From NCBI GenBank assembly GCA_014302835.1, contig CP060294.1:3373067-3437066 (forward strand): a DNA stretch of 64,000 nt. The letters are read 5' to 3'. Under the pieces are notes generated by a model. The model was not told where the DNA came from and did not search any database. It saw only the letters and a program-made list of their open reading frames with translations. Source of the DNA: Pedobacter sp. PAMC26386. Its GTDB lineage: Bacteria; Bacteroidota; Bacteroidia; Sphingobacteriales; Sphingobacteriaceae. How positions within the stretch are numbered: the stretch's first letter is position 1; each line of letters starts with the position of its first letter. Below, one piece after another: positions 3,376-60,189 of the stretch. The position numbers and the translations under genes are program-made.

Positions 3376-5682
3376 TTGGATTATTTAGCAGGATTAAACC
3401 CTCAGCAACGTGCAGCAGTAGAGAATACTAAAGGACCGGCAATGATTGTCGCTGGTGCGGGATCAGGTAAAACAAGGGTAATTACATACAGAGTGGCACA
3501 TCTGATCGAAAAAGGTGTGGATGCTTTCAATATTTTAGTTTTAACCTTTACCAACAAAGCTTCTAAAGATATGCGTGAGCGTATTTCGAAAGTTGTGGGT
3601 ACAGAAGCAAAGAATTTGTGGATGGGAACATTTCACTCGGTATTTGCTAAAATATTACGTGTAGAAGCAGAAAAGATAGGTTATCCTTCTAATTTCACCA
3701 TTTATGATACAGATGATAGTAAAAGTCTGATCAGAGCTATCTTGCGTGAAATGCAGCTGGATGATAAGTTATATAATGCAAACTTTGTATACAACCGGAT
3801 TTCTTCTGCAAAGAACAACCTGGTTAGTCATGTAGAATACATGAAAAGTGCAGAGATTCAGGCAGAAGATATCAGTAATAAACGCCCTTTGATAGGTTCT
3901 ATTTATGAAACTTATACTAAAAGATGTTTCAAAGCTGGTGCGATGGATTTTGATGATTTGCTATTCAAAACCAACGTCCTTTTAAAAGATCATCCGGATG
4001 TATTAAATAAATACCAACAGAAATTTAAATACCTGATGGTAGATGAGTACCAGGATACTAACTTTTCTCAATATACGATTGTAAAAAAACTAGCCGCAGC
4101 TTATCAGAATATCTGTGTGGTTGGTGATGATGCACAAAGTATCTACGGTTTCCGTGGGGCTAATATTCAGAATATCCTGAATTTTGAAAAAGATTACCCG
4201 GATTTGAAAGTCTATAAATTAGAGCAAAACTATCGCTCTACACAAAACATAGTTGATGTAGCGAACAGTATCATTGCGAATAATAAAAATCAACTGGAGA
4301 AAAATGTCTTCTCCGAGAATGAATCAGGAGATAGGATTAAGGTATCCCGAGCTTTTACAGACAATGAGGAAGGTAAAATAGTAGCCGAATCTATTGTTCA
4401 GGAGCGGACTTCAAAAGGATTAAATTATAGTGATTTTGCTATTCTTTACCGGACCAACGCACAATCAAGGGCAATGGAGGAAGGCTTAAGAAAGCTGAAT
4501 GTACCTTATAAAATATTTGGCGGACTATCTTTCTATCAGCGCAAAGAGATCAAAGATTTAATCGGTTATTTCCGTTTAACCTTCAATCCGAGCGATGAGG
4601 AAGCTATCAAAAGAGTAATCAATTATCCAAAAAGAGGATTAGGTGATACAACTGTCGAAAAGATAATTGTAGCCGCCGATCAGCATGATATTACCATGTG
4701 GCAGGTGATCTGTGAACCGCAAACCTATATTGCCGGCCGGATCGCTAACCAGTTGAATGACTTCTCGATGCTGATCAAAAGTTTCCAGGCAGAGTCAAAA
4801 AAACTGGATGCTTATGAAACAGCTTTATATATCGCACAGCATTCCGGTATTTTAAAAGAACTGCACACAGATGATAGTGTAGAGGGACGCAGCAGGTATG
4901 AAAATATTCAGGAGTTATTAAACGGTATCAAGGAATTTGCTGAACGTGAAGATATTGAAGATAGAAGTCTGGCTATTTTCATGCAGGATATTGCCTTGCT
5001 AACGAATGACGACAGACAGGATGATAAAGAAAAAGATACCGTTTCCTTAATGACGATTCACTCGGCAAAAGGACTGGAATTTAAGAACGTATTTGTAGTC
5101 GGGCTCGAAGAAAATCTGTTCCCTTCACAAATGTCATTGAATTCAAGAACCGATCTGGAAGAAGAACGCAGGTTATTTTATGTAGCCATTACACGGGCAG
5201 AGAAAAAGCTGACCTTAACTTATGCTACTTCACGTTACCGCTGGGGTACACTGACCAATTGTGAACCAAGCCGGTTTATCAGTGAGATCAGTGCTAAATT
5301 CCTGGAGCTGGAAGTGGTAAAAGCGCCAAAAACGACAAGCACTTCTGATAGTTTTGATGGAGAACGCAGGTCATGGTCACAACAGAGAGATTCTTTCAGT
5401 AAACCTAAACCAGCAGCTTCAGGTTCAACCACGCAAACTGCTCCGCCAAGACCTGCAACCAGGACAATCTTGCCTACTGCACATATCCCAACACCTGGCT
5501 TTGCGCCTGATGCAGCGAGTGCTTTTCAAAATGGCATGGAGGTTGAACATGAGAAATTTGGATTCGGTAAAATCATTAACCTGGAGGGTACTTTACCTGA
5601 TGTAAAAGCGACGGTATTTTTCCAGGGATTAGGAAACAAGCAATTGTTATTAAAATTTGCTAAATTGCGGATTGTAAAATAA
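3376..5682 (+). CDS. UvrD/PcrA-type ATP-dependent DNA helicase (SF1)
   Basis: A 768-aa 3'-5' DNA helicase for repair and replication-fork maintenance. SF1A motifs appear in order: Q-motif LNPQQ (8-12), Walker A AGAGSGKT (26-33), motif Ia TFTNKA, Walker B DEYQDT (223-228), QSIYGFRGA, LEQNYRS, then LMTIHSAKGLEF and FYVAITRAE near the end of the helicase core. A Ser/Thr/Pro/Ala-rich linker leads to a C-terminal Tudor-like module with VEHEKFGFGKI, as in PcrA/UvrD, where it contacts RNA polymerase. Initiation is at TTG (3376); there is no nearby in-frame ATG, and residue 2 begins the conserved DYLAGLNPQQ. It is probably transcribed with the DUF4290 and murA genes. Confidence 0.93.
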   Translation: MDYLAGLNPQQRAAVENTKGPAMIVAGAGSGKTRVITYRVAHLIEKGVDAFNILVLTFTNKASKDMRERISKVVGTEAKNLWMGTFHSVFAKILRVEAEKIGYPSNFTIYDTDDSKSLIRAILREMQLDDKLYNANFVYNRISSAKNNLVSHVEYMKSAEIQAEDISNKRPLIGSIYETYTKRCFKAGAMDFDDLLFKTNVLLKDHPDVLNKYQQKFKYLMVDEYQDTNFSQYTIVKKLAAAYQNICVVGDDAQSIYGFRGANIQNILNFEKDYPDLKVYKLEQNYRSTQNIVDVANSIIANNKNQLEKNVFSENESGDRIKVSRAFTDNEEGKIVAESIVQERTSKGLNYSDFAILYRTNAQSRAMEEGLRKLNVPYKIFGGLSFYQRKEIKDLIGYFRLTFNPSDEEAIKRVINYPKRGLGDTTVEKIIVAADQHDITMWQVICEPQTYIAGRIANQLNDFSMLIKSFQAESKKLDAYETALYIAQHSGILKELHTDDSVEGRSRYENIQELLNGIKEFAEREDIEDRSLAIFMQDIALLTNDDRQDDKEKDTVSLMTIHSAKGLEFKNVFVVGLEENLFPSQMSLNSRTDLEEERRLFYVAITRAEKKLTLTYATSRYRWGTLTNCEPSRFISEISAKFLELEVVKAPKTTSTSDSFDGERRSWSQQRDSFSKPKPAASGSTTQTAPPRPATRTILPTAHIPTPGFAPDAASAFQNGMEVEHEKFGFGKIINLEGTLPDVKATVFFQGLGNKQLLLKFAKLRIVK

Positions 5683-5768
5683 GGTTTATCTTTAAACCAT
5701 ATTACAGTAAAACAAGGCTAGGAGCCTTTATAATCCCCCTTCAGCGAATACCACAAGAAATAAATAGA

Positions 5769-6458
5769 ATGAATTTCGATTACAATACCACAAGAAACGA
5801 GTTAATTCTTGCAGAATACGGACGTAATGTACAAAACATGGTGAAGTACATTTGCGAACTACCGGATCTGGAAGAGCGCAATAAATATGCTCAGGCAGTG
5901 ATAGATTTAATGGGTTTTTTAAACCCTCATCTAAGGGATGTTGCCGATTTCAAGCATAAGTTATGGGATCATTTACACATTATCTCCGGTTATAAAATCG
6001 ACGTGGATAGTCCATATCCCAAGCCAACTCCAGAAATGGCATTGGTTAAACCTTCGCATATCGGTTATCCGCAGCAAAGGATAAAATATAAGCATTACGG
6101 TAAAACTGTTGAAGTGATGATCGAAAGAGCCATCGCAGTAGAAGAACCGGAACGTAGAGCAGCCCTGGTTCAGGGCATCGCTAACTTTATGAAAATGGCC
6201 TATGTGACCTGGAATAAAGATAGTGTTGCTGATGAAACTATCCTGAAAAATCTAAGCGAATTGTCAGGTGGATTACTTCAGCTGGAAGAAAACATCAACC
6301 TGAACAAGGTAGAATTCAGACCTCCTGTAAACAGAGCATCTACAAATACCAACCGCGGACGCAATAACAACAATAATAAGGGAAGGCAAAACAATAACAA
6401 CAACAATAATAATAACCGCCCGCGCAGCAGCAATCCCAACCCAAAACAAAGACATTAA
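5769..6458 (+). CDS. DUF4290 domain protein with Asn-rich tail
   Basis: A 229-aa soluble protein. Residues 1-180 match my memory of DUF4290, a family confined to Bacteroidota and often found next to murA: NTTRNELILAEYGRNVQ, LMGFLNPHLRD, FKHKLWDHLHIISGY. The last 40 residues form a tail of Asn, Arg and Gly (NRGRNNNNNKGRQ and a longer Asn run) ending in basic residues, encoded by AAC/AAT trinucleotide repeats. This resembles RNA-binding disordered tails, an inference only. It lies 86 bp after uvrD and 34 bp before murA. Function unknown. Confidence 0.8.
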   Translation: MNFDYNTTRNELILAEYGRNVQNMVKYICELPDLEERNKYAQAVIDLMGFLNPHLRDVADFKHKLWDHLHIISGYKIDVDSPYPKPTPEMALVKPSHIGYPQQRIKYKHYGKTVEVMIERAIAVEEPERRAALVQGIANFMKMAYVTWNKDSVADETILKNLSELSGGLLQLEENINLNKVEFRPPVNRASTNTNRGRNNNNNKGRQNNNNNNNNNRPRSSNPNPKQRH

Positions 6459-6492
6459 AAGAGCAGATTTAAATAATATAGGTTAATAGCAC

Positions 6493-7818
6493 ATGAACGC
6501 ATTTGAAATTATTGGTGGGAAGAAGTTAAAAGGTGAAATCCATCCTCAGGGAGCTAAGAATGAAGCGTTGCAGATTATATCTGCCGTTTTACTTACAGAA
6601 GAAAAAATCACTGTAAGTAATATCCCTGACATCAAAGATGTAAATAAACTGATTGAACTTCTAGGTGATTTAGGCGTTGAAGTGCACCGCTTATCAAAAG
6701 ACACTTACACGTTTGAAGCAAAGAATATCGATCTTGAATTCTTTAAATCAGCCACTTTTAAATCTAAAGGCGGAAGTTTAAGAGGATCAATTATGATCGT
6801 TGGACCACTTCTTGCGCGTTTCGGACAAGCTGCTATTCCTAAACCAGGTGGTGATAAAATCGGTCGCAGAAGATTAGATACGCACTTCCTTGGCTTTGAA
6901 AAATTAGGAGCAAAATTCGTTTATGACGCTAAAGAATCATTCTTTAACGTAGATGCCACTAACCTTAAAGGTGCTTATATCTTATTGGATGAAGCTTCTG
7001 TAACAGGTACAGCAAACATTGTTATGGCTGCGGTACTTGCAAAAGGAATTACAACCATCTATAACGCTGCCTGTGAGCCTTATTTACAGCAGCTGTGTAA
7101 AATGCTTAACCGCATGGGTGCCAAAATATCCGGAATCGGATCTAACCTGTTAACTATTGAAGGGGTAACCAAACTGGGTGGTACTGAGCACAGAATGTTA
7201 CCGGATATGATTGAGATTGGTTCTTTTATCGGCCTTGCTGCCATGACTGAATCAGAAATCACAATCAAAAACGTTTGTTACGAAGAATTGGGTGTTATCC
7301 CTGATGTATTCAGAAAATTAGGTATCAATTTTGAACGCAGGGGTGATGATATTTATATTCCTTCGCAAAAACATTATATCATCGATACTTTCATTGATGG
7401 ATCTATCCTGACTATTGCAGATTCACCATGGCCAGGCTTCACTCCTGACTTATTGAGTATTGTACTGGTTATTGCTACACAAGCTAAAGGATCTATATTA
7501 ATCCATCAGAAAATGTTTGAAAGCCGTTTATTCTTTGTGGATAAACTGATTGAAATGGGCGCTCAGATTATTTTATGTGATCCGCACAGAGCTACTGTAA
7601 ACGGAATCAACAAACAGTATAAATTAAGAGGTATCAGTATGACCTCTCCTGATATCAGAGCTGGAGTTTCCCTTTTAATCGCAGCTTTATCTGCTGAAGG
7701 AACTTCAACTATCTATAATATCGAACAGATTGAACGTGGTTACCAGGATATCGATACGCGTTTACGCGCATTGGGTGCACAAATTAAACGTGTGGATGCA
7801 AATTCACCATCTCACTAA
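6493..7818 (+). CDS. murA: UDP-N-acetylglucosamine 1-carboxyvinyltransferase (MurA)
   Basis: A cytosolic enzyme that transfers enolpyruvate from PEP to UDP-GlcNAc, the first committed step of peptidoglycan synthesis. At 441 aa it is slightly longer than the usual ~420. The family signatures are clear: GAKNEALQIISAVLL (20-34), SLRGSIMIVGPLLARFGQA (95-113), EGTSTIYNIEQIERGYQDID near the C-terminus. The catalytic-loop residue that is Cys115 in E. coli is Asp here (D121 in PGGDKIG, codon GAT 6853-6855). Cys-to-Asp MurA is active and not alkylated by fosfomycin in other bacteria, so intrinsic resistance of this enzyme is predicted. A strong terminator follows. Confidence 0.96.
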   Translation: MNAFEIIGGKKLKGEIHPQGAKNEALQIISAVLLTEEKITVSNIPDIKDVNKLIELLGDLGVEVHRLSKDTYTFEAKNIDLEFFKSATFKSKGGSLRGSIMIVGPLLARFGQAAIPKPGGDKIGRRRLDTHFLGFEKLGAKFVYDAKESFFNVDATNLKGAYILLDEASVTGTANIVMAAVLAKGITTIYNAACEPYLQQLCKMLNRMGAKISGIGSNLLTIEGVTKLGGTEHRMLPDMIEIGSFIGLAAMTESEITIKNVCYEELGVIPDVFRKLGINFERRGDDIYIPSQKHYIIDTFIDGSILTIADSPWPGFTPDLLSIVLVIATQAKGSILIHQKMFESRLFFVDKLIEMGAQIILCDPHRATVNGINKQYKLRGISMTSPDIRAGVSLLIAALSAEGTSTIYNIEQIERGYQDIDTRLRALGAQIKRVDANSPSH

Positions 7819-50317: not shown

Positions 50318-50395
50318 AGGATAAAAAACATTATTTACATTGTTTTAACCAAACAGTTTTCAAAAATCATGTGCAATTGGCTAACTTTACGCCAC

Positions 50396-52186
50396 ATGAA
50401 GCACCTTCGTTTTTTAAATAAACATTTCTATAAATATAAATGGTGGATCATACCCGGGGTGTTTTTCGTTATTATCTCTAATATTTTCGGCGTAATTCCT
50501 GCTCAGGTCATTGGCCATGCCTTTAATTTAATTACTGAAAACATCCAGATTTACGGACTGTTTGACGGTTTCGAAAGACAACAGATTATTTATGATATTT
50601 TCAGTTATAGTCTTCTATATTTTGGTGCACTGGTACTCATTCTCTATTTAGTAAGGGGTTTATTCCTCTTTTTTATGCGGCAGACCTTAATATTAATGTC
50701 CCGGCATATCGAATTTGACATGAAGAATGAAATCTATGCACATTATCAAAAGCTGAGCCTTGGCTTTTACCGTCGTAACAATACAGGCGATTTAATGAAC
50801 CGGGCAACAGAAGATGTAAACAGAGTAAGAATGTATGTTGGTCCTGCAATTATGTATGCTATCAATACGCTCGTTTTGTTCCTGCTGATTATTACTTCCA
50901 TGTATTCCGTAAATGCCAAACTAGCGACTTTCAGTTTATTACCTCTACCGGTACTCGTGGTGATCATTTATTTTGTGAATACCCAGATTAATAATAAGAG
51001 TGAGCAGATTCAGGAACAGTTATCCAGTCTGTCAAGCTTTGTACAAGAGCGTTTTTCAGGTATCAGGGTTATCAAATCATATGTTCGGGAGGAGTACACC
51101 AGAGAAATTTTCGCCAATGAAAGCAACGCCTATAAAGGTAGCGCAATGGGGCTTGTACGTGTACAAGCGCTCTTCTACCCTACTATGCTTCTTTTAGTTG
51201 GACTGAGTACCATCCTAACTGTATATATAGGTGGAGAACAAGTACTTGATGGCTCCATTACCCCCGGTAATATCGCAGAATTCATTGTTTATGTCAATCA
51301 GCTTACCTTTCCTGTAACTATGCTTGGCTGGGTAACCACCCTGATTCAGCGGGCTTCAGCTTCTCAAAAAAGAATCAATGAATTCCTGGAATTACAGCCA
51401 GATATCCGTACAGGCGAAGCACCAGTGGAAGATCTTAGCGGAAATATCAATTTCAATCAAGTAAGCTTTACTTATCAGGACACAGGAATCAAAGCACTAC
51501 AAGACGTAAGTTTTGATATTAAAGCGGGACAGTTTGTAGCTATCATTGGCCGTACCGGTTCAGGAAAATCGACACTGGCCAATTTGATTATGAGGATGTA
51601 TGATACCGATTCGGGACAGATTTCGATCGATGGAACTTCAATAAAAAAGGTCAACCTGAATTCATTCAGAAATCAAGTCGGTTTCGTTCCGCAAGAAGTT
51701 TTTCTCTTTTCTGATAATATCAAGAATAATATCGCTTTTGGTTTAGATCAGGTGACTGATCTGGAAATCGAAACTGCGGCGAGAAATGCAGCCGTATACC
51801 ATAATATAATGGATTTTGAACTGAAATTTGACACCATGCTTGGGGAAAGAGGAATTACCCTTTCTGGTGGACAAAAACAACGTGTATCTATTGCCAGAGC
51901 ACTCATAAAAGAGCCCAAAATATTGATTTTCGATGATTGTCTTTCTGCGGTGGATACCAAAACTGAAGAAGAAATCTTAAATAATCTGGGTAATGTCATG
52001 AAAGGAAAGACCAGCATATTAATTGCTCACAGGATTTCCACTATCAAAAAAGCAGACAAAATTTTAGTTCTTGAAGAAGGGCGCATTGCCGAGCAAGGAA
52101 CTCATGATGAGCTAATTAGCCTTCATGGAATCTATGAAGAAATGTATCAAAACCAGTTATTGGAAGAAGAAAATAAATCTCTTTAA
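50396..52186 (+). CDS. ABC exporter (TM domain fused to ATPase), MsbA/BmrC-like
   Basis: A 596-aa half-transporter: six TM segments (about 1-310) and a nucleotide-binding domain (about 345-590). Walker A IGRTGSGKST, Q-loop VPQEVFLFSDN, signature LSGGQKQRVSIARAL, Walker B ILIFDD and the switch His in LIAHRIS are present. The residue after the Walker B Asp, normally the catalytic Glu, is Asp (D514; codon 51935-51937). The DDxLSAVD pattern recalls BmrC/YheI-type subunits, which act as heterodimers, yet no partner gene is adjacent. ATG 50396 was chosen because it starts the KHLRFLNKHF helix. Substrate unknown; lipid or drug export is likely. Confidence 0.9.
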   Translation: MKHLRFLNKHFYKYKWWIIPGVFFVIISNIFGVIPAQVIGHAFNLITENIQIYGLFDGFERQQIIYDIFSYSLLYFGALVLILYLVRGLFLFFMRQTLILMSRHIEFDMKNEIYAHYQKLSLGFYRRNNTGDLMNRATEDVNRVRMYVGPAIMYAINTLVLFLLIITSMYSVNAKLATFSLLPLPVLVVIIYFVNTQINNKSEQIQEQLSSLSSFVQERFSGIRVIKSYVREEYTREIFANESNAYKGSAMGLVRVQALFYPTMLLLVGLSTILTVYIGGEQVLDGSITPGNIAEFIVYVNQLTFPVTMLGWVTTLIQRASASQKRINEFLELQPDIRTGEAPVEDLSGNINFNQVSFTYQDTGIKALQDVSFDIKAGQFVAIIGRTGSGKSTLANLIMRMYDTDSGQISIDGTSIKKVNLNSFRNQVGFVPQEVFLFSDNIKNNIAFGLDQVTDLEIETAARNAAVYHNIMDFELKFDTMLGERGITLSGGQKQRVSIARALIKEPKILIFDDCLSAVDTKTEEEILNNLGNVMKGKTSILIAHRISTIKKADKILVLEEGRIAEQGTHDELISLHGIYEEMYQNQLLEEENKSL

Positions 52187-52256
52187 TTTCTATTTTGATC
52201 TTATCTAATTAATGCTTTATATTTACCCGAACCAAAAACCAACAGCAATACCAAAC

Positions 52257-52583
52257 ATGGGAGAATTCGACAACAAAGAGAGAGAAGAGGTTTTTTCTAA
52301 AAAAGTAAGGGCCGGTAAGAGGACTTATTTTTTCGACGTTAAAGCAACACGTTCAGGAGATTATTATTTAACTCTTACTGAAAGCAAGAAAAGACTGGAA
52401 GACGGTGTATTTGTAAAACATAAGATCTTTTTATACAAAGAAGATTTTGAGAAGTTTGCTGAAGGATTAAACGAAACAGTTGATTATATCAAGAATCACC
52501 AGGAAGTAGTTGAAAAACGCTACGAATATTCGGAAAACCATGAAGGTGCCGTAAAGAGCCAGAATGATGATTTTTCTTTCTAG
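52257..52583 (+). CDS. DUF3276 (PUR-alpha-like) protein
   Basis: A 108-aa cytosolic protein of the DUF3276 family, whose fold resembles PUR-alpha nucleic-acid-binding repeats. Segments: EREEVFSKKVRAGKRTYFFD, VKATRSGDYYLTLTESKKRL, HKIFLYKEDFEKFAEGLNET. ATG 52257 (MGEFDNKEREE) was chosen over an in-frame ATG 15 codons upstream because family members start with MG(E/D)-type residues. Binding of DNA or RNA is expected from the fold; the role is unknown. A terminator follows. Confidence 0.88.
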   Translation: MGEFDNKEREEVFSKKVRAGKRTYFFDVKATRSGDYYLTLTESKKRLEDGVFVKHKIFLYKEDFEKFAEGLNETVDYIKNHQEVVEKRYEYSENHEGAVKSQNDDFSF

Positions 52584-54270: not shown

Positions 54271-55047
54271 TTAATATCCTTCCAATTGAATCCAAACCGG
54301 TCCATGATCACTTGTTTTCTCCCATCCGCGAACATCGCGATCTACACCGCAAGCAGCCAGTTGATTGACAATTGACGGACTCAATAAAAAATGGTCAATC
54401 CTTAATCCTGCATCACGACCATAAGCATTACGGAAATAATCCCAATACGTATAAATCCGTTCTTCAGGATGAATCTTTCTTACCGCATCGGTCCAGCCTT
54501 GCGAAGTCAATGCTTTGAAAGCCTCACGAGATTCAGGTCTGAACAGCGCATCTTCGACCCAGCGCTCCGCCTTATAAGCATCCAACTCAGTCGGTATAAT
54601 GTTATAATCTCCAGCCAAAATCACTGGAATTCCACTTGCAATTAATTCTGCCGTATAAACCTTAAACCGTTCTATCCATTCCAGCTTATACTCGAATTTT
54701 GGTCCTGGCACAGGATTACCATTTGGCAAATAAAGACATCCAATCAAAACCCCATTAATTTTTGCTTCAATATAACGGCTCGGACTATCTTCCGGCTCCC
54801 CTGGCAATCCCCGTTTAACTTCAGTAATCTCCGCAGTGCGCGATAAAATAGCCACACCATTCCAGCTCTTCTGTCCATGCCAGACCACCTGATAGCCCGC
54901 ATCAAGTATTGCCTGCTCAGGAAATTTTTCCTGAGGCGCTTTTAGTTCCTGTAAACAAACCACATCAGGTGCAGTTTGTTCCAGCCAGCGAAGCAACACG
55001 GGCAGACGTGCATTTATTCCGTTTACATTATAAGTAGCTACTTTCAT
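54271..55047 (-). CDS. xth: exodeoxyribonuclease III
   Basis: A 258-aa Mg2+-dependent AP endonuclease/3'-5' exonuclease for base excision repair. Motifs: MKVATYNVNGINARLPVLLR, VCLQELKAPQEKFPE (catalytic Glu), KSWNGVAILSR, LAGDYNIIPTELDA (D-x-N), WTYWDYFR-like YTYWDYFRNA, RIDHFLLSPS and TSDHGPVWIQLE (catalytic His). Length is normal. It is convergent with the S41 gene. Confidence 0.95.
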   Translation of the reverse strand: MKVATYNVNGINARLPVLLRWLEQTAPDVVCLQELKAPQEKFPEQAILDAGYQVVWHGQKSWNGVAILSRTAEITEVKRGLPGEPEDSPSRYIEAKINGVLIGCLYLPNGNPVPGPKFEYKLEWIERFKVYTAELIASGIPVILAGDYNIIPTELDAYKAERWVEDALFRPESREAFKALTSQGWTDAVRKIHPEERIYTYWDYFRNAYGRDAGLRIDHFLLSPSIVNQLAACGVDRDVRGWEKTSDHGPVWIQLEGY

Positions 55048-55083: not shown

Positions 55084-55125
55084 AAAAACAAAGGGTGACT
55101 TATTCGTTATAAGTCACCCTTTGTT
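55084..55125 (-). terminator. terminator of the three-gene coiled-coil/Ppx-like operon
   Basis: Perfect 17-bp stem: AACAAAGGGTGACTTAT (55087-55103) and its complement (55109-55125) around TCGTT; T-rich on the minus strand. Confidence 0.92.
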
Positions 55126-55167
55126 TTAAATAATCTTTGGTTTATTCAGGAACCTTAAACAAGGTTC

Positions 55168-56169
55168 TTACTTAACCGAAAGCAAGAATCCTATTGTAAA
55201 GTTAGCATCCCAGTCAAACACGAAGGTGTCACAATGAGTTGCATATTTGATCGCTTTATAAATATTTACTCCACTTTTAATCTTTACTTTATCCGTATTA
55301 TATTTTTCAGGATTATTCAATACTGTAAATCTTTCTTCACCAACACGAGTCTGTTTAGCCAACTCAAAAGGAACACCGCCAATAATAAAACAAACCTCAC
55401 GTTTAGCAGCTGGAATTTTTTCAGCAATAGCTTTAACCTCATCATATACCGCAGCATCTTTTAAATCTTTCTCATAATACTTAGCTCCCGGAGCTTCAGC
55501 AGATTTAACTATACCATCCATCCAGGAGATTTTTGTGTTACCAGAACCAATATCAACAACAAAAGAGTTATCATAATAAGAAGCTGGCAACACACATTTC
55601 AATGCTAATTTCCCCTCTTGTTCTGCAGTTACTAAATTAACTACATAACCCATTTTTTTAAGTTCAGAAGTAATAGCAGCTGTTTTAGGCTCTTTTTGAG
55701 CACCAGAACTAATTACAAAATGAATATTTTTAGACTTTACACCCTTATCAAACATTGCACCTATATAATCTTTTAATCCTGTACGGATATCTGCAGTGGA
55801 AGCCATCCCCTCATACACGAAAGATTTACCGAAATCTTTAGAAATGATCTCCCAGCGTTTTTCTTTATCAATATTAACTACAAAAGAGTTAAAACCAGAA
55901 GCACCCACCTCAACTACACCTTTGTATTCACCGTTAACTGGTTTTTCTGGCGTATAGTTAAAAGTACGTTTATCATCACTGCTTTTTACCGCAGAACCAG
56001 ATGTACTTACAGTTCTGCTGATGCCAGTACTGTCCGGAGCTGCTTTAGTTGTCATCCCATCCAGTTTTCCACTTTCAGATGCCCAGTAACCTAATCCTAT
56101 AATTGGAATGGCAATAATGATAGCTTTTATTGGCCAGCGTAATCTGCCCCATGTCGATTTCTCTTCCAT
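55168..56169 (-). CDS. membrane-anchored Ppx/GppA-like (actin-fold) protein
   Basis: A 333-aa protein: basic N-terminus, one TM (about 16-31), a low-complexity Ser/Thr linker (32-80), then one compact domain. The domain resembles the first half of Ppx/GppA exopolyphosphatases: phosphate-1-like VVEVGASGFNSFVV (85-98), LVTAEQEGKLAL (179-190, compare the ISGxEEAxLAY motif), phosphate-2-like FVVDIGSGNTKISWMDG (203-219), and FIIGGVPFELAKQ (261-273). The HD domain of full-size Ppx is absent. By the positive-inside rule the domain would lie outside the cytoplasm, where nucleotide is scarce. It is the last gene of the operon. Enzymatic activity is not proven by sequence. Confidence 0.7.
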   Translation of the reverse strand: MEEKSTWGRLRWPIKAIIIAIPIIGLGYWASESGKLDGMTTKAAPDSTGISRTVSTSGSAVKSSDDKRTFNYTPEKPVNGEYKGVVEVGASGFNSFVVNIDKEKRWEIISKDFGKSFVYEGMASTADIRTGLKDYIGAMFDKGVKSKNIHFVISSGAQKEPKTAAITSELKKMGYVVNLVTAEQEGKLALKCVLPASYYDNSFVVDIGSGNTKISWMDGIVKSAEAPGAKYYEKDLKDAAVYDEVKAIAEKIPAAKREVCFIIGGVPFELAKQTRVGEERFTVLNNPEKYNTDKVKIKSGVNIYKAIKYATHCDTFVFDWDANFTIGFLLSVK

Positions 56170-56226
56170 ATTTTTGTTTTTATAAATTGATATATTGATT
56201 TATTCCAGCCCAGACTGTTTATTTAT

Positions 56227-57336
56227 TTAATCTAATAAAGTAAAGCCTTTGTCTACTTTCTCTTCACTTTTCAGTTCATAAGAAGCATCTGACATCTGAC
56301 TAACATTCAGCATTTTAAGATTACGCTGATCTACCTTCTGAATAAACTCTTCCAGTTCACTTTGTGATGGTGCACCACCAACAGTGATATTATTATTCTG
56401 ATCAAGGAAATCCAGATTGGAACGGATAGACGCAATATTCTGACTGATTGCACCAGTTGCAGCGTTCATCGCCTCCTGGAATACCCAGCTATCTTTAATA
56501 TTAAACACTTCTGCTAAACCATCTGTAGCATTTTTCATTTTCTGAGTAGCTTCCAGTTTTTTAGAAATAATAGAAATACTGCTATCCAGTGTACTTACAT
56601 AAATACGGGCAGCACTTTCATTGTCTTTTAAAACTTCCAGTACCTTAGCAAACTGGTTAGCATACTGAACATAACTTCTTGCATTCTGTTCTTCCGACTC
56701 CCCTTCTTTTCCTAATAAAAATGCTTTGGTACGGGTTTCCTTTGCATCTCTGCCATAACCATTCGCTTTTTCAATATTATTATTTGCAGTTTCCACTTTA
56801 CCTTTTTCATCCAGATTTGCAGCTTCAACTGTAAAACGTTTAGCATAAGTATATTTCTCTTCTGCAGTTTTCTGTGCAGTTTCACCACTTTGAATCATAT
56901 CAATACGTACACCATCTACGTTCGTGATTTTTTCTTTTACACGCTTTAAAGTGTCTTTCGCATCTTTAGACAATAACTGAAGTGTTTCAATTGGGTTATT
57001 ACGGATAATCGCCTTCTCTCCTTTAAAAATAAGGATAGTCCCTAATCTGTGTAATAAAGCCGTAATTTTTGGCGCAAGCATGAGTAAAACAATCAGAATA
57101 ATGCTGAAAATCACTAGCAAAATACTTTTTGCAGCATATTCCAGCATAATAGGCAGGAACTTAAAAAAAGCAAATGAGCCACCTAAAACAAAAGCCCAGA
57201 AAAAAATATTGGACATTGTTTTTCTGGCTTCTGGTGTTTGCATCTGGCTAGGCAAATGATCACCAAGCACCTGGAATATAGGCAACTGGCTCTTCAGTTC
57301 GGCCGGTATATTTACAAATTGGGAGTTGTTTTCCAT
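56227..57336 (-). CDS. two-TM protein with long helical/coiled-coil tail, unknown family
   Basis: A 369-aa protein that I cannot assign to a named family. Residues 1-42 are soluble, two TM segments follow (about 43-66 and 71-88), then a basic stretch LLHRLGTILIFKGEKAIIRN (94-113, in part) and a long, charged, Ala-rich helical region (118-310) with heptad-like spacing, recalling PspA or SNARE-like tails. The C-terminus (320-369) is acidic and ends FTLLD. The positive-inside rule places both ends in the cytoplasm. It follows the coiled-coil gene by 7 bp and precedes the Ppx-like gene by 57 bp. Membrane scaffolding or remodelling is a guess. Confidence 0.6.
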   Translation of the reverse strand: MENNSQFVNIPAELKSQLPIFQVLGDHLPSQMQTPEARKTMSNIFFWAFVLGGSFAFFKFLPIMLEYAAKSILLVIFSIILIVLLMLAPKITALLHRLGTILIFKGEKAIIRNNPIETLQLLSKDAKDTLKRVKEKITNVDGVRIDMIQSGETAQKTAEEKYTYAKRFTVEAANLDEKGKVETANNNIEKANGYGRDAKETRTKAFLLGKEGESEEQNARSYVQYANQFAKVLEVLKDNESAARIYVSTLDSSISIISKKLEATQKMKNATDGLAEVFNIKDSWVFQEAMNAATGAISQNIASIRSNLDFLDQNNNITVGGAPSQSELEEFIQKVDQRNLKMLNVSQMSDASYELKSEEKVDKGFTLLD

Positions 57337-57343
57337 ATCTTTC

Positions 57344-58054
57344 TTAATTTATGTTTGTTTCAATTATGTTAAGGGCATTTTTAATATCGGTAATTACTTC
57401 GGCAACGGCAGTATTCCCAATAGCTATTTTTGCATCAATATCCTGAAGCTGCGGTTCATATTTACTATTGATCTCTTTCAGTTCTTTTTGTCTGGAGCCT
57501 AATTTTTCACGCAGCTCGTCAATATTCTGTTCAAGTCTTTGTATTTCGGCGCTCAGATTAGCCTTTTCTGCTACCTGATTTTGTTCAACATTCTCCTTTT
57601 GCAACTGCTTTTGACTAGTTTCCTTGTCAATAACCTTCTGCAGTTCAGCCGCATAATTCTGACCAGTCCTGATCAGTTTATCTTTATCTAATGTCTTATC
57701 TACATACTTCAAAGACGTAAATGCAGCTTTGATTGAGCCCGCATTCACACTCCCCATTTCCGCAGCAGCATTCCAGACTTCAAAAAAGTCCAGTCCTGGT
57801 TCATTAATCCTTTCCAGTATTTCCAGGACTTTAATCTTCATCTGTTTTACATCTGTAGGTGGTAAATCAGAAGTATTTTGTGTTAGATTAGTTTGAGGAT
57901 TTTTAGTTACGTTTTCACCTGTTTTAGTTTCCGCAGCCGATTGTGCTGCAATAGGCTGCACTTCAGAAACAAATGGCTCCGGGCTATCCTCAAAGATTAA
58001 TTTCTTTAAGCTTTTTAAAATCCCGAAGGAGTTATTTGCTGGTTCCTCACTCAT
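57344..58054 (-). CDS. soluble coiled-coil protein, unknown family
   Basis: A 236-aa cytosolic protein, first gene of the operon. Residues 1-66 are low-complexity; 68-142 form a small helical domain (MKIKVLEILERINEPGLDFF, EVWNAAAEMGSVNAGSIKAA, FTSLKYVDKTLDKDKL); 146-212 are a strong coiled coil (LSAEIQRLEQNIDELREKLG); 213-236 a final helix. No enzyme motif, no TM. The helical domain may be a protein-binding module that senses or couples to the two-TM partner, but this is inference. No homologue is recognised. Confidence 0.6.
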   Translation of the reverse strand: MSEEPANNSFGILKSLKKLIFEDSPEPFVSEVQPIAAQSAAETKTGENVTKNPQTNLTQNTSDLPPTDVKQMKIKVLEILERINEPGLDFFEVWNAAAEMGSVNAGSIKAAFTSLKYVDKTLDKDKLIRTGQNYAAELQKVIDKETSQKQLQKENVEQNQVAEKANLSAEIQRLEQNIDELREKLGSRQKELKEINSKYEPQLQDIDAKIAIGNTAVAEVITDIKNALNIIETNIN

Positions 58055-58299
58055 AATTTAATTTATCTATCTAAAAATAATAAAAAAACCAAGATAACAT
58101 ATCGATTTATTTAACCCGGTCTATTTCTTCAAAATTAATTTAAATTTAATAGATAAACAGAATTAAACAGAGCAGGTATTCTGGACATTAATTCAATAAA
58201 ATGCCAATTTCATCTACTATTTTGCCAAAAATAACAAAGAAAAATACTGGAAATTAGATCTTTAGCAACGCCAGAGAATGCACACAAAACAACGTGATT

Positions 58300-60189
58300 A
58301 TGAAAACACATTTAGCCAAAATGATTTCGCTGATACTTTCATTTTTAATAGTTCAGTTTCAATATCTACCGGTATCTGCTGCTATTCAACCTGGCCCACG
58401 TGCTCAAAAAACCATAATTATAGCCAGTCCGGATGGAAAAATTCATTTACTGCTGCAACAAAAAAACGGATCTTTAGCTTATGCAGTTAATTTCAACAAA
58501 AAACCTGTAATAGAATATTCTCATTTAGGAATGATTATCAATGGGAAGCTATTTGGAGATCAAGCTTCGACAGGTGAGGTTGAGAAATATACAATTAACG
58601 AAACATACCCATACAGAGGTGTACACAACCTGGCGAGGAACCACTGCAATGGGGTAAAAATCAATATAAATGCTACAGAATCCTCATTTGTCCTCGACGT
58701 TAGAGTTTTTAACGACGGTGTTGCCTTTCGCTACCTGATCAGCAATACAAACGAAGCAATTATTGAAAAAGACACCACAGAATTTGTAATCCCTTCCGGT
58801 AGCCTCGTATGGTCACAACCTAATATCAAATACTATGAAGGTATTTATAAGCAACATCAGATTGAAGCATTTAAACAAGATGACCTGGCTGGCCCACCCA
58901 TTACCATTTTATTACCAGAAAACAATGGGTATGCGGCAATCACAGAAGGCGGCCTGACAGATTTCGCAGGCATGGCACTACGTGCTGGGGGAAAGCGGAA
59001 TTTCTATGCCCACCTATCCGGAGTAACCAAAAAATCCGGACTTATTGAATCTCCCTGGAGAATTATTGAAATCGGTAAAGACCTCAATACATTGGTTAAC
59101 TGTGATATTATTGCCAATGTCTCCCCTTCTTTTGACCCTGTCATTTTTCCAAAAGGTTACGATACAGACTGGATCAAACCTGGCCGCAGTGTCTGGTCGT
59201 GGCTTGCAGGAAATGGTAAAGTCACTCTGGAAACTATGAAACGTTTTTCAGATTATGCCTCCGCCCTGGGTTTTGAATACAACCTCGTGGATGAAGGCTG
59301 GAGTAATTGGAAAGACGGAGACAAAAACCAGTGGGATCTGATGAAAGAACTGGTGGATTACTCAGCCAAAAAAAATGTAAAGATATGGGTATGGAAAGCC
59401 TATCCGGACAGAAAAGGAATAGCAGGTATCAAAGACCCTGAACAACGAAAAGCATTTTTCAGGAAATGCAAAGATTTAGGTATTGCAGGACTAAAAGTAG
59501 ATTTCTTTGATGCTGAATCCCAGGAAATCATAGACTTCTATCAGGCCGGGTTAAAGGATGCCGCAACTGATCAATTGATGATGGATTTTCATGGTGCCAA
59601 TAAACCGACCGGAGAAACACGTACCTGGCCAAACGAGATGACCAGAGAAGCAATCAAAGGTATGGAAGGTAAACCACCATGGGCACTGGGTAATACAACA
59701 CTTCCATTTACCCGCTATCTTGCCGGTCATGCAGATTACACTCCGGTTCACTTTGGAAAACGACTGGGAGAAATCAGCTGGGCACATCATATAGCCAGTA
59801 TGATCATCTTTACCTCCCCATTTTTATGTATAGCAGCCGATCCACAGAGTATCCTGGATAATCCCGCAAAAGCGATGATGCTCAGTATTCCATCTACTTG
59901 GGATGAAACAATTGTCCTCCCCCAAAGTAAAATAGGTGAGCTGGTTTTTTATGCCCGTCGAAAAGGCAAAGTCTGGTATCTGGCAGCAATGAATGGCCTA
60001 TCTACCACACAAACTATCAAACCTGATCTTTCATTTTTGGGTAATGGAAAATATAAGCTTTCTGCTGTCATGGACGACAAAGAAAAACAAGACCATGTTT
60101 TATTGGAAAACACAACCATTTCAGCAAAATCAGCACTCACTATAAAACTGAATGCTGAAGGAGGCTATGTTGGCCGGTTCAACCAATAA
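58300..60189 (+). CDS. GH97 family glycoside hydrolase, exported
   Basis: A 629-aa protein with a signal peptide (1-27). GH97 members are alpha-glucosidases (SusB, inverting) or alpha-galactosidases (retaining). The N-terminal beta-super-sandwich (41-290; ASPDGKIHLLLQQKNGSLAY) is followed by a TIM barrel: NLVDEGWSNWKDGDK, IAGLKVDFFDAESQEIIDFY and MMDFHGANKPTGETRTWPNE, then a C-terminal sandwich. Asp in KVDFFD (D401 from the ATG) is where retaining members have their nucleophile, so an alpha-galactosidase-like enzyme is more likely than SusB. ATG 58300 was chosen over GTG 58294. No Sus genes adjoin. Confidence 0.9.
   Translation: MKTHLAKMISLILSFLIVQFQYLPVSAAIQPGPRAQKTIIIASPDGKIHLLLQQKNGSLAYAVNFNKKPVIEYSHLGMIINGKLFGDQASTGEVEKYTINETYPYRGVHNLARNHCNGVKININATESSFVLDVRVFNDGVAFRYLISNTNEAIIEKDTTEFVIPSGSLVWSQPNIKYYEGIYKQHQIEAFKQDDLAGPPITILLPENNGYAAITEGGLTDFAGMALRAGGKRNFYAHLSGVTKKSGLIESPWRIIEIGKDLNTLVNCDIIANVSPSFDPVIFPKGYDTDWIKPGRSVWSWLAGNGKVTLETMKRFSDYASALGFEYNLVDEGWSNWKDGDKNQWDLMKELVDYSAKKNVKIWVWKAYPDRKGIAGIKDPEQRKAFFRKCKDLGIAGLKVDFFDAESQEIIDFYQAGLKDAATDQLMMDFHGANKPTGETRTWPNEMTREAIKGMEGKPPWALGNTTLPFTRYLAGHADYTPVHFGKRLGEISWAHHIASMIIFTSPFLCIAADPQSILDNPAKAMMLSIPSTWDETIVLPQSKIGELVFYARRKGKVWYLAAMNGLSTTQTIKPDLSFLGNGKYKLSAVMDDKEKQDHVLLENTTISAKSALTIKLNAEGGYVGRFNQ

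What the first reader, a model, noticed from the sequence alone, without database searches (positions are those of the whole stretch)
55084..58054. Candidate undescribed three-gene membrane system: coiled-coil protein, two-TM helical protein, Ppx/GppA-like anchored protein
The three genes share one strand, with gaps of 7 and 57 bp, and end at a perfect 17-bp-stem terminator. All three are linked by topology: a cytosolic coiled coil, a membrane protein with about 190 residues of cytosolic helix, and a membrane-anchored actin-fold protein. This recalls envelope-stress or membrane-scaffold modules (PspA-type helices plus a sensor), but I recognise no named family for the first two.
Basis: partly seen in the sequence, partly recalled or inferred. 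Interest (0 to 1): 0.75.

Follow-up and report, generated by a model that had tools for sequence, protein, structure and literature searches.

The report
PspA-like membrane operon with outside domain
This bacterium carries a three-gene set, conserved in many relatives, that seems to tie a membrane-scaffold protein inside the cell to an enzyme-like domain on the outer side of the inner membrane; a sister version with a transporter in place of that domain occurs in related bacteria and in a giant phage.

Summary
In detail: three same-strand genes, gaps 7 and 57 bp, one strong terminator. It is a real, patchily conserved operon: 53 of 67 loci fetched with the third protein (P1) also hold P2 and P3.

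P2 is a TM-hairpin protein whose cytosolic part looks like a very remote PspA/Snf7 (bacterial ESCRT-III) relative: divergent members hit PspA_IM30 at up to E=3.5e-7 and the P2 profile finds true PspA genes. Against this, the window's own copy has no hit and profile-profile comparison does not exceed its control.

P1 has the Ppx/GppA fold (Z 21.5). Relatives with signal-peptide-like or lipoprotein-like starts put its domain in the periplasm, not the cytosol.

In other genomes, including two of the same genus, and in a 462-kb phage, P3-P2 is followed by a solute-binding/OmpA protein and an ABC permease, often with ABC ATPase and AAA+ ATPase. Ravi et al. 2024 describe operons of that kind. The exchangeable outer part (three changes on the P2 tree) is the interesting result. 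Function is inferred.

The parts
57344..58054 (-). P3: cytosolic coiled-coil protein, 236 aa, no TM segment
   Evidence: family alignment A6 of 37 members; Pfam scan gives scattered coiled-coil families
57992..58018 (-). P3 N-terminal motif LKSLKKLIF, basic and hydrophobic, possible membrane-touching segment (inference)
   Evidence: pattern found in 26 of 37 family members
56227..57336 (-). P2: TM-hairpin protein with long helical cytosolic part, probable remote PspA/Snf7 relative, 369 aa
   Evidence: against:
57070..57219 (-). P2 TM hairpin (residues 40-89)
   Evidence: hydropathy
56503..56994 (-). P2 predicted long alpha-hairpin (residues 115-278), opening with the (N/D)P motif that aligns with the EDP motif at the start of the PspA hairpin
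   Evidence: low-confidence model; alignment; (N/D)P present in 29 of 30 diverse P2 rows
56230..56247 (-). P2 C-terminal tail GFTLLD; in most rows aromatic-x-x-two hydrophobic-acidic, in the solute-binding type of the sister operons often ending after the two hydrophobic residues; possible partner-binding tail (inference)
   Evidence: last 14 residues of 30 members
55168..56169 (-). P1: membrane-tethered Ppx/GppA-fold protein, 333 aa
56080..56130 (-). P1 signal anchor (residues 14-30)
   Evidence: hydropathy
55171..55932 (-). P1 Ppx/GppA-like domain (residues 80-333), predicted periplasmic
   Evidence: VIA-align range 80-333, Z 21.5
55085..55127 (-). intrinsic terminator behind P1

Best explanation
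The operon makes an inner-membrane envelope module. P2 is a PspA/Snf7-like (ESCRT-III-type) scaffold protein in which the usual membrane-binding N-terminal helix is replaced by a fixed TM hairpin; it would assemble on the cytosolic face. P3 is its steady cytosolic coiled-coil partner. P1 displays a Ppx/GppA-fold domain in the periplasm, where it would bind, and perhaps hydrolyse, a phosphate-rich ligand such as a nucleotide or polyphosphate. Ligand state outside would then set the assembly of the P2/P3 scaffold inside, or P2/P3 would cluster and hold P1 at damaged or specialised membrane sites. Shown here: the operon, its conservation and co-occurrence, the predicted P1 fold, and the exchange of P1 for a solute-binding/OmpA protein plus ABC permease on the same P3-P2 pair. 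Supported by inference: periplasmic P1 and the PspA/Snf7 relationship of P2. Inferred only: assembly, ligand, signalling and role in envelope stress.
For: Order P3-P2-P1: 53 of 67 loci (52, plus L057 whose P2 and P3 are listed); median gaps 10 and 31.5 bp in the 52. Genus sample of 145 genomes: P2 at 89% identity or more in 24, and all 24 hold P1 next to it. G190 carries P3+P1 and P2 + a 4-TM gene on different contigs, so the parts stay together in the genome even when unlinked. P2 as PspA relative: PF04012 hits P2 genes in G072 (9.5e-8), G166 (1.2e-6), G037 (9.1e-4); 6 of 30 P2 members hit PF04012 at E<=0.01, best 3.5e-7, more members than any other family; in the 5 of 7 shown singly the match starts at profile position 22-23; conversely 7 of 11 weak hits of the P2 profile are PF04012 genes. 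The P2 groups join by profile comparison: window type with solute-binding type 99.6%, with the third group 97.5%, third with solute-binding type 91.5% over 91 columns. P1 fold: Foldseek 5.5e-13, Z 21.5, profile E 9.2e-8 to Aquifex PPX. P1 outside: DUF6799 fusion behind a signal-peptide-like start in two Hymenobacter loci, lipoprotein-like starts. Exchange of partner: 3 changes between P1 and PBP on a 41-row P2 tree.
Against: The window's own P2 has no PF04012 match at E<=1, and no P2 tested reaches the Pfam cut-off (30.5 of 33.9 bits at best). Profile-profile comparison with 29 PspA gives 8.5% for all P2, 11.6% for the other P2 groups and 0.1% for the window's own group, while controls give 0.3-4.5% (P2 against reversed PspA) and 9.2% (P3 against reversed PspA). 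The P2 model is weak (pLDDT 63.5, pTM 0.39); no Foldseek hit is below E 0.001; Z 10.1 to Vipp1 is under the 13 advised for helical models, and a chemoreceptor (11.0) and SMC arms (10.6) score higher. A coiled coil alone reaches E 7.1e-6 in Pfam (P3). P1 has no P2/P3 in the fetched DNA in 13 of 67 loci, and 5 of 29 genus genomes with P1 have no P2 match, so P1 has a life of its own. P1 departs from Ppx at the first motif (E87 where Ppx has D) in 40 of 40 rows. The orientation of P1 rests on hydropathy and reading by eye; no signal-peptide predictor was at hand.
Confidence: 0.6

Rival explanations
1. P2 and P3 are ordinary coiled-coil membrane scaffold proteins unrelated to PspA/Snf7; the resemblance is coiled-coil convergence, and the operon is a lineage-specific scaffold holding P1 in place.
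For: hhalign not above control, and 0.1% for the window's own P2 group; weak P2 model with non-specific helical structure matches; P3 gets chance Pfam hits down to 7.1e-6.
Against: The hits of P2 to PF04012 go both ways and recur in 6 of 30 divergent members, from the same profile position in the five shown, whereas P3 hits scatter over 61 families. Ravi et al. 2024 call a protein in the sister kind of operon a Snf7 homologue with a TM segment, though identity with P2 was not checked.
Confidence: 0.22
2. Nutrient scavenging: P1 is an active periplasmic nucleotide or polyphosphate hydrolase (like NTPDases), and P2/P3 only localise it, as the sister operon localises a solute transporter.
For: Fold close to PPX and to NTPDases (Z 21.5 and 17.7); the Glu in the EQEG motif (E185) is the same in 40 of 40 rows and aligns with EQEG of Aquifex PPX; in relatives the same place is held by a solute-binding/OmpA protein and ABC permease.
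Against: The first phosphate motif has E for D in 40 of 40 rows and the second reads mostly DIGSGNTK in place of DxGGGST, so catalysis is uncertain; no phosphate-uptake gene is among the eight neighbours scanned.
Confidence: 0.25
3. The first reader's picture taken as a cytosolic actin-fold sensor next to a cytosolic coiled coil.
For: Known Ppx/GppA are cytosolic (established knowledge).
Against: Net charge higher on the N-terminal side of the TM segment in 34 of 40 P1 rows; signal-peptide-like and lipoprotein-like versions; the exchangeable partner bears an OmpA domain, a peptidoglycan-binding type that works outside.
Confidence: 0.05

Closest known systems
PspA/Snf7 + AAA+ ATPase + ABC transporter + PBPB/OmpA operons (Ravi et al. 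2024, mSystems, PMC11237479; abstract, outline, sections 13 and 18 and search passages seen)
   Same: A TM-bearing Snf7-type coiled-coil protein with a periplasm-facing partner; the window's P3-P2 pair is homologous to the pair in the solute-binding/OmpA-type operons found here.
   Different: No solute-binding/OmpA protein, permease, ABC ATPase of that type or AAA+ ATPase in the window operon or among its eight scanned neighbours (one search finds an ABC exporter about 3 kb away); a Ppx/GppA-fold ectodomain stands in their place. 'Ppx' occurs 0 times in that paper's main text; its supplements were not seen. Whether its example OGG56892.1 is this family was not checked.
PspA/IM30 (Pfam PF04012), bacterial ESCRT-III
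   Same: Predicted long helix hairpin opening with an (N/D)P motif; sub-threshold profile hits both ways for divergent members.
   Different: Below the Pfam cut-off; TM hairpin where PspA has an amphipathic N-terminal helix; window copy without a hit.
Exopolyphosphatase / GppA (PF02541)
   Same: Same two-lobed fold in the model (Z 21.5), Glu of the EQEG motif, Asp of the second phosphate motif.
   Different: Membrane-tethered and probably exported; E for D in the first motif; below the Pfam cut-off (15.5 of 27 bits). The genome has two ordinary Ppx/GppA genes besides.
NTPDase/apyrase (same superfamily; ecto-enzymes by established knowledge)
   Same: Extracytoplasmic location and fold (Z 17.7).
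   Different: Lower structural score than PPX; no sequence match in the PDB profile search.
pspA-like gene next to terD in Jug huge phages (PMC12363816, passages seen)
   Different: TerD context; ABC transporter and OmpA have 0 occurrences in its main text.

Membership tests
PspA_IM30 (PF04012) | profile score over the curated cut-off (33.9 bits) | tested here: not met
   best P2 member 30.5 bits; window P2 no hit at E<=1
PspA_IM30 (PF04012) | detectable homology of the helical domain | tested here: inconclusive
   E 3.5e-7 and hits both ways for divergent members, but hhalign 0.1-11.6% against controls of 0.3-9.2%
PspA_IM30 / ESCRT-III | alpha1 + alpha2/3 hairpin, then alpha4 and alpha5 | tested here: inconclusive
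   model shows helices 115-184, 188-278, 284-308, 325-337, but pTM 0.39 and Z 10.1 to Vipp1
PspA_IM30 / ESCRT-III | peripheral membrane binding by an amphipathic N-terminal helix | tested here: not met
   two hydrophobic segments in that place in the window copy
PspA_IM30 / ESCRT-III | polymerisation on membranes | not testable with these tools
   needs protein
Snf7-TM/PspA + AAA+ + ABC + PBPB/OmpA operon (Ravi 2024) | PBP/OmpA and ABC transporter genes in the operon | tested here: not met
   absent from the window operon; present in other genomes and phages
Snf7-TM/PspA + AAA+ + ABC + PBPB/OmpA operon (Ravi 2024) | AAA+ ATPase partner beside the operon | tested here: not met
   none among eight scanned neighbours; in the own genome two partial matches to the AAA+ protein of G349, best 37% over about 144 aa
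Snf7-TM/PspA + AAA+ + ABC + PBPB/OmpA operon (Ravi 2024) | its own Snf7-TM protein is the same family as P2 | not tested
   the paper's sequences were not at hand; P2 of the window and of the solute-binding/OmpA operons found here are homologous (99.6%)
Ppx/GppA (PF02541) | two-lobed Ppx fold | tested here: met
   predicted model, Z 21.5, 244 residues, 3.4 A
Ppx/GppA (PF02541) | profile score over cut-off (27 bits) | tested here: not met
   15.5 bits
Ppx/GppA (PF02541) | conserved Glu of the EQEG-type motif | tested here: met
   E185 in 40 of 40 rows, aligned with Aquifex PPX; its catalytic role is recalled
Ppx/GppA (PF02541) | Asp of the first phosphate motif | tested here: not met
   E87 in 40 of 40 rows, opposite D in the PPX alignments
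Ppx/GppA (PF02541) | phosphohydrolase activity | not testable with these tools
   needs an assay
NTPDase (GDA1/CD39) | five apyrase conserved regions | not tested
   only the fold was compared

The most novel reading that the evidence does not exclude
A TM-anchored bacterial ESCRT-III-like scaffold whose periplasmic read-out is an exchangeable cartridge: in one set of lineages an exported actin-superfamily (Ppx/GppA-fold) domain, in another an OmpA-bearing solute receptor with an ABC transporter, the latter also carried by at least one jumbo phage. It would be a transmembrane way of coupling an outside phosphate-ligand state to membrane remodelling inside, without a AAA+ partner in the window's form.
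Probability: 0.5. Interest if true: 0.75.

Novelty: new variant of a known kind. Interest (0 to 1): 0.58.

Why it matters
Ravi et al. 2024 write that it is unknown how PspA homologues without an associated AAA ATPase regulate assembly. This operon is a small natural set, three genes without a neighbouring AAA+ gene, in culturable bacteria, in which a probable scaffold protein is fixed in the membrane and tied to an outside domain with a recognisable ligand-binding fold. The window's own genome (84.7% complete by the listed estimate) and 29 of 30 sampled relatives have no canonical PspA match, so the module may be one of the few of its kind there. The exchange of P1 for a transporter receptor makes the coupling testable by comparing harmless species of both types. 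The same pair in a 462-kb phage genome suggests that some large phages act on the host envelope with it.

Tried and rejected
Rejected: a phage origin of the window-type operon (P1 has no match in 50,697 phage records, and no pattern match in IMG/VR; the window P2 had 5 pattern matches there, none confirmed). Rejected: P2 as a TelA/XpaC protein; no such family came up in Pfam; phage tellurite-resistance proteins appear among non-significant Foldseek hits only. Led nowhere: PHROGs for the window proteins; PDB profiles for P2 and P3 give generic coiled coils, SNAREs, tektin; viral structure library; hhalign of P2 against PspA. A mutual exclusion of P2 and canonical PspA is not supported as a rule: 3 of the 14 P2 genomes (G084, G166, G289) also hold PspA over the cut-off, against 113 of the other 282. 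Literature: no title or abstract listed by the ten searches and no passage seen describes the P1-type operon; subscription papers and supplements were not searchable.

Rows dropped or counted with care. L007 (a chance match) was left out of the P2 alignments, though an early local P2 model had taken it in. A5 and A6 contain sequences from several of the 296 genomes, so matches there are by construction. P2 was found without a member of A5 in eight genomes: G064, G072, G084, G158, G162, G166, G178, G253 (G084 is a near copy of a member). Of the seven without G084, six show P3; G072 shows it only by a local model at 2.2e-8. In one search most PspA-like decoys that ranked high had been fetched because the P2 profile hit them, so I do not use that ranking as evidence. 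L067 and L073 have P1 and/or P2 split into fragments and are among the 52; L063 has P1 1367 bp away. G162 and G178 have a second P2 without a P3 found beside it; G037 has one P2 alone, and its P3 lies beside a degenerate P2 copy. The genus count of 24 leaves out G348 and G349, whose P2 matches at 24% identity and belongs to the solute-binding type; at E<=0.001 the count is 26 of 145. Family and genus names of G genomes are not given by the tools; 'Flavobacterium-like' and the like in my notes were guesses and are not used here.
Full report
WHAT IS THERE. On the minus strand, P3 (58054-57344, 236 aa), P2 (57336-56227, 369 aa) and P1 (56169-55168, 333 aa) follow each other with gaps of 7 and 57 bp and end at a strong hairpin terminator, 55127-55085, 19 pairs, z = -7.29. 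Behind the terminator, on the same strand, is an Exo_endo_phos gene (54271-55047); upstream is a divergent glycoside hydrolase 97 gene (58294-60189); the further neighbours scanned are an ABC exporter, DUF3276, peptidase S41, a Glu/Leu dehydrogenase, OsmC and an MFS protein. The genome is a single contig of 4.80 Mb; the nearest named relatives of P1 are Pedobacter cryoconitis strains, 94-95% identical, so the source is probably a Pedobacter.

CONSERVATION. A genome-contig scan with P1 gave 67 loci, among them Pedobacter, Sphingobacterium, Chitinophaga, Niabella, Taibaiella, Segetibacter, Dyadobacter, Larkinella and several MAGs. In 53 of 67 P3 and P2 lie upstream on the same strand (52; L057 by the list); one more has P2 without a P3 found (L051); 13 have neither in the DNA fetched, among them L074, which holds only a fragment of P1. 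In the 52 the median gaps are 10 bp (P3-P2) and 31.5 bp (P2-P1). Within the genus, P2 at 89% identity or more is in 24 of 145 genomes and all 24 hold P1 next to it; five more genomes hold P1 without a P2 match. The operon is conserved but patchy.

CO-OCCURRENCE. Across 296 genomes of the phylum the P2 profile finds 14 genomes at E below 1e-35, the P3 profile 13 at E of 1.1e-12 or better, all inside the 14 (Fisher 8.5e-22). P1 is strong (E of 6e-85 or better) in 6, of which 5 are in the 14. Some of these genomes had given sequences to the profiles; among seven that had not, six show P3. In G190 the parts are split, P3+P1 on one contig and P2 with a hydrophobic 168-aa gene (about 4 TM, by eye) on another; in G249 all four stand together.

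THE EXCHANGEABLE PART. In G084, G202 and G289 (one unnamed genus of family f4), in two genomes of the window's own genus (G348, G349), in G072 and G166 (f9) and in G253 (f2), P3-P2 is followed not by P1 but by a protein of about 600 aa and then a permease homologue. In the four of these eight tested (G084, G166, G253, G349) the 600-aa protein has a C-terminal OmpA domain at E 8.6e-19 to 2.4e-23, with sub-threshold NMT1-type similarity in G166; three phage copies also have OmpA, at 9.1e-15 to 2e-20. An ABC ATPase homologue follows in G084, G202, G289, G253, G348 and G349 but was not seen in G072 and G166. An AAA+ ATPase with AAA_lid_6 comes next in G084, G202 and G349; in G289 the next gene is something else. 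The same set is in phage record LR756500 (462 kb, with a terminase match): P3, P2, OmpA protein, permease (PF00528) and ABC ATPase (PF00005). IMG/VR loci L077, L078 and L080 show P3, P2, the OmpA-type protein and permease; L076 and L079 begin inside P2. L077, L078 and L079 carry an AAA-domain gene after the ABC ATPase, and L077 and L080 a phage-type DNA ligase. The three IMG/VR records searched for a terminase are fragments of 19-53 kb and gave no match. On a 41-row P2 tree the P1 and PBP states need 3 changes, the PBP group 3 in the bootstrap range 3-3, and the phage rows lie beside the f4 and own-genus PBP rows. The tree warns of long branches that meet, so the number of exchanges is approximate.

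P2. No curated family reaches its cut-off in the rows scanned singly. Four lines point to PspA/Snf7. (a) PF04012 over 296 genomes lists 13 places below its cut-off, and 3 of these are P2 genes, including the best one (9.5e-8). (b) The P2 profile has 11 weak hits outside P2, and 7 of them are PF04012 genes. (c) Six of 30 P2 members match PF04012 at E of 0.01 or better; seven were looked at singly, five match, all from profile position 22-23. The hhalign alignment, not significant in itself, puts the almost invariant P of P2 on the EDP motif of PspA. (d) The predicted layout is a long helix hairpin followed by shorter helices, with Vipp1 as the first Foldseek hit at E 0.012. Against this stand the weak model; hhalign values of 0.1% (window group), 8.5% (all) and 11.6% (other groups) with controls up to 9.2%; no direct hit for the window copy; and coiled-coil chance hits down to 7.1e-6 for P3. 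I put the relationship at about three in four, and do not file P2 as a PspA_IM30 member, since the cut-off and the N-terminal helix feature are not met.

P1. The model (pLDDT 85.2) matches Ppx/GppA structures: Foldseek 5.5e-13, Z 21.5 with 244 residues at 3.4 A, NTPDases Z 17.7. The profile hits Aquifex PPX at 9.2e-8 and aligns EQEG with EQEG. E87, G89, G92, S154-G156, E185, D206, G208 and N211-K213 are the same in 40 of 40 rows; E87 stands opposite the Asp of ordinary Ppx. All 40 rows have an N-terminal hydrophobic segment (one row a second one), with the net charge higher on its N side in 34. Two Hymenobacter copies (L070, L071) carry DUF6799 behind a signal-peptide-like start, and two copies in G088 have lipoprotein-like starts (only one fits the search pattern used). 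Signal peptides were judged by eye. Two more distant relatives with signal-peptide-like starts, L103 and L104 (both among the 40 rows), score over the Ppx-GppA cut-off and also have E in the first motif. The genome holds two ordinary Ppx/GppA genes elsewhere.

HOW IT MAY WORK. The layout is a scaffold-like protein fixed in the membrane (P2), a cytosolic partner nearly always at its side (P3), and a periplasmic domain that differs by lineage. The simplest reading is coupling between an outside ligand and the inside scaffold, or localisation of the outside domain by the scaffold. The C-terminal tail of P2 and the hydrophobic N-terminal motif of P3 (26 of 37 rows) are candidate contact points; that is inference.

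WHAT IS KNOWN. Ravi et al. 2024 (PMC11237479; abstract, outline, sections 13 and 18, and search passages seen; [quoted passage not shown] The solute-binding type found here fits that description; their sequences were not compared. 'Ppx' has no occurrence in its main text, nor have 'bacteriophage' and 'jumbo'. [quoted passage not shown] A huge-phage preprint notes a pspA-like gene beside terD (PMC12363816, passages); the 2020 huge-phage paper has no occurrence of 'transporter', 'OmpA' or 'PspA' (PMC7162821, word search of the main text). The P1 type was not seen in the listings of the ten answered searches.

VERDICT. Observation confirmed, interpretation partly supported, novelty as a new variant of a known kind.

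Noticed in passing
L075 10109-15798 (phage LR756500) and IMG/VR loci L077, L078, L080: Phage genomes carry the P3-P2-OmpA protein-permease-ATPase set of the sister operon; L077 and L080 have a DNA ligase near by, L077, L078 and L079 an AAA-domain gene.
   Followed up: partly
L103 5790-6866, L104 5379-6437, L105 5210-6664: Further probably exported Ppx/GppA-like proteins in the phylum: signal-peptide-like start + Ppx domain beside an apparent MFS transporter (by eye; L103, L104), and TPR + weak Ppx domain (L105). A wider set of extracytoplasmic Ppx-fold proteins seems to exist.
   Followed up: partly
L094 6535-7476 and 12204-13166: Genome G088 has two lipoprotein-like P1 copies about 5 kb apart and no P2 or P3 match.
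   Followed up: no
L043, L048, L205, L206: In several Pedobacter-group genomes a lone P1 sits beside a MutS-like gene and, on its other side next to it or up to two genes on, a gene that looks like tRNA hydroxylase MiaE (names recalled, no call).
   Followed up: no
L155-L158: Two separate P3-P2 pairs per genome in G064 and G158 with P1 elsewhere; one pair lies near a Na/Pi cotransporter with PhoU domains and a glycerol-3-phosphate dehydrogenase (each Pfam-tested in one of the two genomes).
   Followed up: partly
L061 7082-7582, L095 6332-6838, L097 5737-6240: A hydrophobic protein of about 167 aa follows P1 or P2 (Dyadobacter, G190, G249); no Pfam match for the L061 and L005/G190 copies tested; a possible fourth member.
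   Followed up: partly
window 50369-52583 and L156 8347-10632: DUF3276 and an ABC exporter lie near the operon in the window and also directly beside a P3-P2 pair in G064; chance or old neighbourhood is not decided.
   Followed up: no
L073 (Niabella defluvii) about 3907-7012: P1, P2 and P3 are split into several frames in this record, by decay or sequencing error.
   Followed up: no
L059 (record titled Williamsia MAG): A MAG titled with an actinobacterial name holds a P1 like those of Bacteroidota; the bin name is probably wrong.
   Followed up: no
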